From the NCBI RefSeq assembly GCF_007833275.1, contig NZ_CP042241.1, positions 186,001-250,000 on the forward strand: DNA of 64,000 nt, in the 5' to 3' direction. This document shows positions 44,058 to 46,370 of the stretch, piece by piece. Made by a program: the position numbers and the translations under genes. The number at the start of each line of letters is the position of its first letter. Position 1 is the stretch's first letter. Source of the DNA: Salarchaeum sp. JOR-1 (GTDB taxonomy: Archaea; Halobacteriota; Halobacteria; Halobacteriales; Halobacteriaceae). The notes under the pieces were generated by a model that had not been told where the DNA came from, ran no database searches, and saw nothing but the letters and a program-made list of their open reading frames with translations.

Positions 44058-44095
44058 ACTGAACGTTTATCATATCGGGCGTGAAACCGCTGCGC

Positions 44096-44770
44096 ATGGC
44101 ACGCTCGTCACGCCGCTGGGGGTCGGCCGGCTTCTTCGTCCTCCTTGGCATCGCCCTCCTGCTGTTCACCACCGACGCGGTCGAATCCATCGACCCATGG
44201 ACGTGGTTTCCCGGTCTGTTCGTCCTGCTCGGCGCGTGGTCGCTCGTCGCGTCCCGCGGCCGCAACCTCACCGGGCCCGTCCTCGTCATCGCCGTCGCGG
44301 GCGCGTTCCTCCTCCGAAACCTGAACTACCTCCCGGACGACTTCATCGGCACGTGGTGGCCCGCCGTCTTCGTCCTGCTCGGCCTCCTCATCCTCCTGAA
44401 CCGCGGCCGCAGACGCCGCGGCCACACCGCGAGCGCGAACGGCGAATTCACGTCCGTCTCCATCTTCGGCGGGGACTCCCAGCACGTCGGCGGCACCGAC
44501 TTCCGGGGCGGCGACGTGGTCGCCATCTTCGGGGGGCCCACCATCGACCTCCGCGACGCAACCGCCGTCGACAAGCCCGCCGTCCTCGAAATCGTCTCCG
44601 TCTTCGGCGGCGCGGAAATCCGCGTCCCCGAAGACTGGACGGTCAAAGCGGAGAGCGTCAACATCTTCGGCGGACTCGAAGACACCCGCCGCAACCCCGG
44701 CACCGCCGACGAACCCGACCTCGTCGTCACCGGAGTCAGCGTCTTCGGTGGCGTCGAACTCACCGACTAA
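44096..44770 (+). CDS. LiaF-like membrane protein
   Basis: A 224-residue protein. Four short hydrophobic segments (GFFVLLGIALLLFTTD, FPGLFVLLGAWSLVA, VLVIAVAGAFLLRNL, WPAVFVLLGLLILLN) match the LiaF/LiaI transmembrane region. A beta-helical LiaF C-terminal domain follows, with repeated Phe-Gly-Gly motifs (SIFGGDSQ, AIFGGPTI, SVFGGAEI, NIFGGLED, SVFGGVEL). In bacteria this family senses envelope stress; here the role is unknown. GTG 44081 would add five residues. The last 20 bp before its stop recur after the 52-bp repeat array. Confidence 0.82.
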   Translation: MARSSRRWGSAGFFVLLGIALLLFTTDAVESIDPWTWFPGLFVLLGAWSLVASRGRNLTGPVLVIAVAGAFLLRNLNYLPDDFIGTWWPAVFVLLGLLILLNRGRRRRGHTASANGEFTSVSIFGGDSQHVGGTDFRGGDVVAIFGGPTIDLRDATAVDKPAVLEIVSVFGGAEIRVPEDWTVKAESVNIFGGLEDTRRNPGTADEPDLVVTGVSVFGGVELTD

Positions 44771-44779
44771 GTCGACTAC

Positions 44780-45116
44780 CCCCCACTCGCTCCGCTCGCG
44801 GGAATCACATCGGACAACCGCGTCCGACTAACCCCCACTCGCTTCGCTCGCGGGAATCACATCGGACAACCGCGTCCGACTAACCCCCACTCGCTTCGCT
44901 CGCGGGAATCACATCGGACAACCGCGTCCGACTAACCCCCACTCGCTTCGCTCGCGGGAATCACATCGGACAACCGCGTCCGACTAACCCCCACTCGCTT
45001 CGCTCGCGGGAATCACATCGGACAACCGCGTCCGACTAACCCCCACTCGCTTCGCTCGCGGGAATCACATCGGACAACCGCGTCCGACTAACCCCCGCTC
45101 GCTTCGCTCGCGGGGA
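44780..45116. repeat. Tandem array of 52-bp units (six full copies plus a partial)
   Basis: Six head-to-tail 52-bp units occupy 44780-45091; a degenerate partial seventh runs to 45116. Copies 2-6 are identical and copy 1 differs at one base. Each contains CACTCGCTTCGCTCGCGGG and the perfect hairpin TCGGAC-AACCGC-GTCCGA, and an in-frame stop (CTAA). The array fills the 370-bp gap between the LiaF-like gene and the DMT transporter; no gene is visible in it. Unlike CRISPR there are no spacers: the units abut directly. Confidence 0.95.
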
Positions 45117-45136
45117 TGGCGTCGAACTCACCGACT
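45117..45136 (+). repeat. Duplicated 3' end of the LiaF-like gene
   Basis: The 20 bp TGGCGTCGAACTCACCGACT at 44749-44768, the end of the LiaF-like gene, is repeated exactly here, followed by TGA instead of TAA. The repeat array is therefore bracketed by two copies of the same gene end, which points to a duplication and recombination event. Confidence 0.9.
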
Positions 45137-45140
45137 GACG

Positions 45141-46049
45141 TTACGTGGCGGAGCGGACGGAGTCGAAGAGCACCCGCCGTTCGATGAGGGCGAACCCAGT
45201 GAAGATGACGAGGAACCCGACCAGGCTCACGGTCGCCAAGCGGGTGTCGAACAACACCAGTCCGAGCGGTGCTGCGACAATCGGTTGCAGGTAGAAGGTG
45301 AGACTCGTTCGCGCCGGGCCGATCCGGTCGATGAGTTCGAAGTGGACGGCGTACAGGATGGCTGTCGCGAGAAGGCTCTCGACGAGGACGCCGGCGACGG
45401 CGGTGGGCGTCCACGCAATCGCCGTCAGTGGGTGGCCGAAGACGCTCGCGATACCGTGGTTCACGACCGCCGCGAGGACGACGCCCCACGCGGTGAGTGA
45501 GAGCCGTGGAATCGCCGGTTCGACTCGCTGGGTTAGTACGGTTCCGAACGCGAATATCGCGACGCTCCCGAGCATCAGTCCGAACCCGAGGACGCGGTCT
45601 GCGTGCAGGGCGGTCGTCGATGGTCGCGCGACGATTCCGACGCCGACGAAACCGAGGAGGATGCCGAGCGCGTCGACGCGGTCGAGCGACGCCGTCGGCA
45701 GCAGGAGGATGGCGAACCCCGTCGTCAGAACCGGCATGAAACTGTAGGCGATCGCGCCGAGCGCGCTGGTGACGTGCTGCTGGCCGGCGAAGAGAACGGC
45801 GTTCATCACGCCGAGCGTGAACACGCCGACGACCAGTACGCCAAGCAGATCGCGGCGGGTGCGCGGGCGCCAATAGTCTAACCGCCAGCCGGCGGCGGCG
45901 ACTAACGCCACGCCCGCGATGTCGAGACGCAGTGCCGCGAACAGCAGCGGCGGAACGTCCGGCATGCCCAGTTTCGCGCCGACGAAGACGAGCGCGCCAC
46001 AGACGCTGTACGTGCCGAACAAGAGCAGGTTCTGGTGCTCGGATCTCAC
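45141..46049 (-). CDS. DMT superfamily (EamA) transporter
   Basis: A 302-residue, ten-helix drug/metabolite transporter with two EamA halves: GTYSVCGALVFVGAKLGM opens the first and GFGLMLGSVAIFAFGTVLTQ the second, ending LVGFLVIFTGFALIERRVLF. The substrate is unknown. I choose GTG 46047-46049 (VRSEHQNLLLFG) because a TATA element lies 30 bp upstream of it; the open frame continues to an ATG at 46124 but the extra 25 residues are basic and unlike the family. Base composition is somewhat less GC-rich than neighbours. Confidence 0.85.
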   Translation of the reverse strand: MRSEHQNLLLFGTYSVCGALVFVGAKLGMPDVPPLLFAALRLDIAGVALVAAAGWRLDYWRPRTRRDLLGVLVVGVFTLGVMNAVLFAGQQHVTSALGAIAYSFMPVLTTGFAILLLPTASLDRVDALGILLGFVGVGIVARPSTTALHADRVLGFGLMLGSVAIFAFGTVLTQRVEPAIPRLSLTAWGVVLAAVVNHGIASVFGHPLTAIAWTPTAVAGVLVESLLATAILYAVHFELIDRIGPARTSLTFYLQPIVAAPLGLVLFDTRLATVSLVGFLVIFTGFALIERRVLFDSVRSAT

Positions 46050-46075
46050 CGGTCGCGGCTTCCGCCCGCTGTCCC

Positions 46076-46081
46076 ATATAT
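46076..46081 (-). promoter_or_regulatory. TATA element of the DMT transporter
   Basis: ATATAT at 46076-46081 is centred 30 bp upstream of the GTG at 46049 on the minus strand and inside the longer open frame, so it argues for the GTG as start of a leaderless message. The rest of 46082-46370 shows no supported gene. Confidence 0.6.
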
Positions 46082-46370
46082 CATGTGGCGGCGACCGGCG
46101 GTTCCGTGGCGCGTGCGGCCTCATCGGGTTTTCGCCGTCCGAATCGCCGAGGCGAGTCCGACTGGAACTTTGCTGCGGGCGGCGCGTCGAACTGTGGGGG
46201 TGGCCGGGCGGGCGTCGCTGGTGCGGTCTATGCGCGCGGTAGCGACGCCGCCGGGCGAACCGGACGCCGATTCGGCCCTCAGACGGCCGCGGCGTCCGCG
46301 AAACTCACGGCTCCGTTCTCGCGTCGACGCGAAACCGTCCCTTCGAGAGAGACGATTCGGAATCCGCGGG

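What the first reader, a model, noticed from the sequence alone, without database searches (positions are those of the whole stretch)
44749..45136. 52-bp tandem repeat array bracketed by a duplicated gene end
Six 52-bp units, five of them identical, plus a partial, follow the LiaF-like gene. Each has a perfect TCGGAC/GTCCGA hairpin. The last 20 bp of the LiaF-like gene reappear exactly on the far side of the array. Near-identity of copies implies recent expansion, so copy number may vary between strains. The hairpins could end transcription, be a processed RNA, or be a protein-binding array; the bracketing suggests repeated recombination next to an envelope-stress gene.
Basis: seen in the sequence. 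Interest (0 to 1): 0.65.

Follow-up and report, generated by a model that had tools for sequence, protein, structure and literature searches.

The report
Amplified haloarchaeal double-hairpin repeat element
The array is six and a half head-to-tail copies of a small two-hairpin DNA element that turns up, usually as scattered single copies, in nearly all haloarchaeal genomes tested and appears not to be described in the databases and papers I could search; here one ancestral copy behind a gene has multiplied locally.

Summary
The array is real and described correctly: six 52-bp units (five identical), a partial seventh, and an exact 20-bp copy of the LiaF gene end beyond it. It is a local tandem amplification. 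The sister species has one hairpin-A copy at the same LiaF 3' end, so the element is ancestral and only the multiplication is new. On the minus strand each unit is a double hairpin: A, with a constant cap CGAGCGAAGCGAG and variable arms, then B. A covariance model built only from other haloarchaeal loci carrying the cap detects the units (45-50 bits). It also finds the element in 129 of 146 Halobacteriales genomes, up to at least 36 copies each, and in none of 69 other genomes of the phylum. Arms covary strongly (16 of 20 pairs). G-T pairs far outnumber A-C mismatches, so one strand's fold is preserved. Other haloarchaea have independent arrays, and some elements lie in frame inside proteins. 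No Rfam family matches; no Y1 transposase lies near the cap. Most likely this is an unannotated REP/RPE-like palindromic repeat that expanded by slippage or template switching. A dedicated LiaF stress role is unsupported. Function as terminator, RNA or binding site is untested; no T-run terminator is present.

The parts
44081..44770 (+). LiaF-like gene (229 aa), upstream neighbour whose 3' end abuts the array
   Evidence: Pfam LiaF-TM E 1.5e-14; LiaF-like_C E 3.6e-6, slightly below its cut-off; 89% identical ortholog in sister G001
44749..44768 (+). first copy of the 20-bp bracket TGGCGTCGAACTCACCGACT (end of LiaF)
   Evidence: sequence
44761..44779 (-). weak B-like hairpin formed by the gene end itself after the outermost hairpin A (GTAGTCGACTTAGTCGGTG on the minus strand)
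   Evidence: stem search with G-T pairs; inference
44773..44824 (-). unit 1, 2 substitutions from the others; keeps the sister-like left edge CGACTACCCCCC..CTCGCTCCGCTCG
44825..44876 (-). unit 2, identical to units 3-6
   Evidence: model R1 match 44802-44862, 45 bits
44877..44928 (-). unit 3
   Evidence: R1 match
44929..44980 (-). unit 4
   Evidence: R1 matches
44981..45032 (-). unit 5
   Evidence: R1 match
45033..45084 (-). unit 6
   Evidence: R1 match 45064-45122, 50 bits
45085..45115 (-). partial unit 7: hairpin A with perfect arms; keeps the sister-like right edge CGCTCGC..GCGGGGATGG
45117..45136 (+). second copy of the 20-bp LiaF end
   Evidence: sequence
45141..46124 (-). EamA-type transporter gene, convergent with LiaF, absent from this place in the sister species
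   Evidence: Pfam EamA E 1.9e-27; sister has metG directly after the hairpins; close homologs in the family only in G159 and G003

Best explanation
Shown: each 52-bp unit, read on the minus strand, is a member of a dispersed double-hairpin element present across Halobacteriales, [variable arm]-CGAGCGAAGCGAG-[arm'] followed by a second hairpin with variable arms. A hairpin-A copy already stood at the LiaF 3' end in the common ancestor with the sister species, and in this lineage it was multiplied to six full units plus a partial one. Inferred: the multiplication happened by slippage or template switching when the hairpins form in single-stranded DNA during replication. The 20-bp copy of the gene end is the footprint of an early duplication whose unit included the gene end. 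The element behaves like bacterial REP/RPE palindromic repeats: a non-coding, probably selfish or nearly neutral sequence that can spread and can expand in place. A side effect may be stable hairpins at the 3' ends of the convergent LiaF and EamA transcripts.
For: Sister: one hairpin A with flanking B-type hairpins at the same site, matched by R1 at 30.8 bits. R1 was built from 29 sequences picked without reference to the unit: 96.7% of cells paired, 16 of 20 pairs with two-sided changes, 128 such cells versus 38 in shuffles. R1 finds the array, 129/146 Halobacteriales genomes and 0/69 other genomes of the phylum. In 96 cap sites taken without regard to flanks the mean stem is 3.6 versus 0.97 after shuffling arms. 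Independent arrays in other haloarchaea, periods 51-64 bp. In two species of one genus the biotin ligase loop holds 3 and 2 caps. The minus-strand unit folds as RNA into exactly the model structure, -25.2 kcal/mol, z -4.1; the plus strand gives only -14.8. Edge units keep ancestral letters.
Against: No strain series was available, so copy-number change within the species is not shown. The slippage step is inferred from sequence. Calculated single-stranded DNA stability of one unit is modest (z -1.45). Hairpin B of the array pairs less well at its base than the family consensus. Mobility of the short form is inferred from dispersal, not from a clean empty site. Strong arm covariation could mean a selected function that this account does not name.
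Confidence: 0.77

Rival explanations
1. Functional 3'-end array: the hairpins end transcription or protect the mRNA ends of the convergent LiaF and EamA genes, and copy number tunes this.
For: Position between convergent genes. In Haloferax volcanii hairpins lie upstream of 503 termination sites and one tested hairpin, from a coding region, terminated 59% of transcripts (PMC7237163). The single sister copy is followed by TTTTT.
Against: No terminator-like hairpin with a T-run in or near the array; the sister's T-run is missing here. Elements elsewhere show no orientation bias to genes (6 sense, 9 antisense) and lie in convergent, co-directional and divergent gaps and in coding genes. Seven hairpins are not needed for termination.
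Confidence: 0.25
2. A structured RNA: the cap strand is transcribed and each double hairpin is a processed or protein-bound RNA, the array being a multimeric form.
For: Folding is much better on the cap strand. G-T pairs outnumber A-C cells 72 to 3 (22 to 3 without the near-constant pairs), so the structure is kept on one strand.
Against: The same asymmetry is expected for a single-stranded DNA element. No orientation bias to transcription. No Rfam match. In-frame copies inside proteins.
Confidence: 0.15
3. A PATE or IS200/IS605-derived element mobilised by a Y1 transposase.
For: Hairpins kept on one strand and no obvious terminal inverted repeats resemble IS605 ends; PATEs are described in Haloquadratum, with core-deleted forms of 52 bp (PMC3119063).
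Against: None of 10 Y1 transposase loci in the genomes searched has the cap within 1.5 kb; genomes G001 and G061 carry elements but no detectable Y1 transposase.
Confidence: 0.08
4. A mutational relic: palindromes and their matching arms arise and are corrected by template switching at quasi-palindromes, with no mobility and no selection.
For: Arms vary freely while staying complementary; tandem copies include flanking gene sequence here, and probably in the G104 biotin ligase loop.
Against: It does not explain the constant 13-nt cap, the conserved links GGCTC and CGGYG, nor the dispersal over most families of the order.
Confidence: 0.12

Closest known systems
Bacterial REP elements and BIMEs
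   Same: Short palindromic dispersed repeats, mostly intergenic, sometimes in tandem clusters behind genes
   Different: No GTAG tag in the consensus, no RAYT/Y1 gene near the cap, constant loop cap with variable arms instead of conserved arms, haloarchaea only
Rickettsia palindromic elements / CGTC-tagged REPs (PMC3733652)
   Same: Palindromic repeats also found inside genes and without a dedicated transposase; many members here have CGTC at the 5' foot
   Different: CGTC REPs have 8-9 bp stems, 4-5 nt loops and an unpaired CGTC tag; the phyla listed for them are bacterial; here the TC of CGTC is paired and the loop is a fixed 13-mer
PATEs of Haloquadratum walsbyi (PMC3119063)
   Same: Haloarchaeal, transposase-free, palindromes near the ends, 52-bp core-deleted forms exist
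   Different: Defined by likeness to IS605 transposon ends; no such association found here
d(GCGAAGC) mini-hairpin
   Same: The cap contains GCGAAGC, known from chemistry literature as an extraordinarily stable DNA hairpin (papers found; the structure details are from my own knowledge)
   Different: A synthetic/biophysical motif, not a genomic element family

Membership tests
haloarchaeal double-hairpin element (model R1) | cap CGAGCGAAGCGAG inside complementary arms, followed at once by a second hairpin | tested here: met
   R1, trained without the array, scores its units 45-50 bits
haloarchaeal double-hairpin element (model R1) | dispersed over haloarchaea, absent elsewhere | tested here: met
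   129/146 Halobacteriales, 0/69 other genomes of the phylum
REP/BIME with RAYT | GTAG tag at the foot of the hairpin | tested here: not met
   consensus lacks it; GTAG at the edge of unit 1 and in the sister is an isolated case
REP/BIME with RAYT | Y1/RAYT transposase gene flanked by the repeats | tested here: not met
   no cap within 1.5 kb of 10 Y1 genes
CGTC-tagged REP / RPE | unpaired CGTC end, 8-9 bp stem, 4-5 nt loop | tested here: not met
   TC is paired, loop fixed (definition from PMC3733652)
CGTC-tagged REP / RPE | in-frame insertion in coding genes | tested here: met
   7 of 7 elements in acidic coding genes lie in the same sense and encode SEAS-type linkers; not true of the window array
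PATE (IS605-related) | ends like those of IS605-type transposons | tested here: inconclusive
   no Y1 association; tnpB-only transposons not surveyed
hairpin terminator with T-run | stem followed by a run of T | tested here: not met
   0 found in 44600-45400; the sister copy has TTTTT
CRISPR array | identical repeats separated by unique spacers | tested here: not met
   head-to-tail units without spacers
any Rfam family | score above gathering cut-off | tested here: not met
   only a tRNA in 16 loci; best array match 21.5 bits versus a cut-off of 90

The most novel reading that the evidence does not exclude
Haloarchaea share a mobile or formerly mobile family of double-hairpin elements, recognised as single-stranded DNA through the constant cap CGAGCGAAGCGAG by an enzyme not yet identified. 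The element spreads between genes, enters proteins in frame as SEAS-type linkers, and now and then expands into arrays such as this one.
Probability: 0.35. Interest if true: 0.8.

Novelty: new variant of a known kind. Interest (0 to 1): 0.58.

Why it matters
A structured repeat found in 129 of 146 haloarchaeal genomes sampled, with strong covariation and copies inside proteins, appears unannotated in Rfam and in the papers I could search. It raises a testable question (what reads the cap, and on DNA or RNA?), supplies natural copy-number arrays as readouts, and warns annotators that many small haloarchaeal hairpins and some protein linkers come from one element family.

Tried and rejected
Exact unit in the own genome: only this locus. 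Unit in viral contigs and array in plasmids: no match. Family consensus in phage records: none; three haloarchaeal plasmid/megaplasmid records match it. The tool's reversed-pattern control for the cap is not clean, because CTCGCTTCGCTC reads the same backwards, so I used arm shuffles and a Markov expectation (about 1-2 copies of the cap expected in this genome, versus 17 observed, six of them in the array). Y1 transposase link: rejected. An outer stem around the double hairpin, seen in G138 and G061, is not general: observed mean 8.1 versus 8.0 shuffled. Promoter scan uninformative for archaea. Literature searches for the cap found nothing relevant.

Full report
OBSERVATION. The tandem array is as described: 44773-45114, period 52, 6.6 copies. 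Units 2-6 are identical, unit 1 differs by two bases, unit 7 is partial. The 20-mer that ends LiaF (44749-44768) recurs exactly at 45117-45136. LiaF (Pfam LiaF-TM) is followed by a convergent EamA transporter gene starting at 45141, then metG.

ANCESTRY. In the sister species G001 (LiaF 89% identical) the same place holds CCCCCCGCTCGCTCCGCTCGCGGGGATGG, then the hairpin GTCAGAC-tcgtcgt-GTCTGAC and TTTTT, then metG; there is one hairpin A, no array and no EamA gene. Unit 1 of the array keeps the left letters of that ancestral sequence (CGACTACCCCCC, CTCGCTCCGCTCG) and unit 7 keeps the right letters (CGCTCGC..GCGGGGATGG), while the inner units share derived letters. That is the pattern left by an internal tandem expansion. 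EamA replaced about 50 bp of the sister intergenic sequence; close homologs exist only in G159 and G003 within the family.

WHAT THE UNIT IS. Read on the minus strand, a unit is TTCCCG-CGAGCGAAGCGAG-TGGGGG-TTA-GTCGGAC-GCGGTT-GTCCGAT. The 13-mer CGAGCGAAGCGAG occurs in all 20 haloarchaeal genomes scanned, 9 to 70 times each. At 96 sites taken only because they carry the 13-mer, the flanking arms pair with each other (mean stem 3.6 versus 0.97 when arms are shuffled between sites; 40% versus 3% with five or more pairs) although the arm sequences differ (55 distinct left 4-mers). Most sites with a good stem continue with GGCTC and a second hairpin ending CGGYG. From 29 such sites, none from this locus, I aligned, counted pairs and built model R1: 96.7% of cells paired, two-sided changes in 16 of 20 pairs, 128 two-sided cells versus 38 shuffled, and collapse when the structure is slid by one column. 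The 29 were chosen because they show both hairpins, so the pairing percentage is partly built in; the genome-wide searches below are the independent test.

MEMBERSHIP. R1 finds the array at 41-50 bits in the window and as six overlapping matches in the genome; the next-best window match has E 0.78. The own genome has further full matches at C2:1901449, 778526 and 2225194 (the last weak), and a cap hairpin alone at 1351662. The sister has the orthologous LiaF copy (30.8 bits). Over the order, 129 of 146 genomes match at E <= 0.01, with up to 36 per genome, which is the number of candidates scored and so a lower bound. Of 80 genomes of the phylum, all 11 of the same order match and none of the other 69; several large haloarchaeal genomes have no match at all, so base composition alone does not produce hits. 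No Rfam family matches.

STRAND. The minus-strand unit folds as RNA exactly into the model structure at -25.2 kcal/mol (z -4.1); the plus strand reaches -14.8. In the training alignment G-T pairs outnumber A-C cells 72 to 3, or 22 to 3 without the near-constant T-G pairs (p 0.00016; sequences are related, so the p-value is only a guide). Since a G-T on one strand is an A-C on the other, the fold is kept on the cap strand as a single strand, not as a symmetric cruciform. Yet in co-directional gaps the cap strand is sense 6 times and antisense 9 times (a crude gene finder was used). That combination fits single-stranded DNA better than a 3' mRNA element, but a separate RNA is not excluded. The cap holds GCGAAGC, the DNA mini-hairpin called extraordinarily stable in the literature (papers found); flanking G-A pairs could extend it (my inference).

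ARRAYS AND PROTEINS ELSEWHERE. Independent tandem arrays built round the same cap exist in G070 (52 bp x 3.1), G115 (55 x 2.7), G343 (60 x 2.9, with the variant cap CTCGCTCCGCTCG), G076 (54 x 3.1), G120, G190 and, with the related CGAGCGACGCGAG, G372. Seven of seven elements in acidic, credible coding genes lie in the same sense and encode GV-x-[AT]-SEASGGS..SDG-like linkers. In the biotin ligase gene the KWPND loop is 6-16 residues in most genomes but 72 and 64 residues in two species of one genus, holding three and two caps. In one further species, G104, the loop copy appears to repeat flanking gene sequence with the element, a parallel to the duplicated LiaF end here.

MECHANISM. Shown: ancestral single hairpin-A copy, family membership, lineage-specific multiplication. 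Inferred: slippage or template switching at the hairpins; the 20-bp bracket as the footprint of a duplication whose unit included the gene end, which can itself form a weak B-like hairpin after the outermost A. Not shown: transcription, termination, protein binding, mobility of the short form, variation between isolates. The array has no terminator-like T-run, while hairpin-assisted termination is documented in Haloferax volcanii (PMC7237163), so a 3'-end role stays a rival.

KNOWN KINDS. It works like REP/RPE repeats but fails their tags and the RAYT association. PATEs (PMC3119063) are the nearest haloarchaeal category but rest on IS605-like ends, which I could not find; tnpB-only transposons were not surveyed. 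I found no paper describing this element, but the library holds open-licence papers only and no supplements were read, so prior description elsewhere is possible.

VERDICT. The array itself is a modest local expansion; the surprise is the order-wide double-hairpin element behind it.

Noticed in passing
L324-L326 (G138) and L331-L332 (G061): In these genomes the double hairpin is the tip of a ~180-bp dispersed element that folds as one long hairpin (about -103 kcal/mol) with hairpins A and B on a three-way junction; copies are 91-94% alike over ~180-230 bp and unlike beyond, apart from a short extra match in G138. Possibly a mobile form.
   Followed up: partly
L117 1383-2510 and L123: Biotin protein ligase with a 64-72 residue loop made of in-frame tandem double-hairpin elements; the own genome's biotin ligase (L290) has a 14-residue loop with a weak R1 match.
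   Followed up: partly
45141-46124: EamA gene present here but not in the sister species, replacing about 50 bp directly beside the array; a gene insertion or replacement whose boundary coincides with the array end.
   Followed up: partly
L319-L323 (G087): Five near-identical double-hairpin elements sharing pieces of longer, modular flanking repeats; dispersed at five places of the genome.
   Followed up: partly
L120 1973-2118 (G115): A 55-bp, 2.7-copy array of the cap plus hairpin directly beside what looks like a tRNA gene.
   Followed up: no
L282 and L269: Orthologous coding gene in G000 and G001 that carries the element in frame in both species; the element sequence has diverged between them.
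   Followed up: no
NZ_CP099994.1, NZ_CP044524.1, CP002989.1: Haloarchaeal plasmid/megaplasmid records carrying unannotated copies of the element.
   Followed up: no
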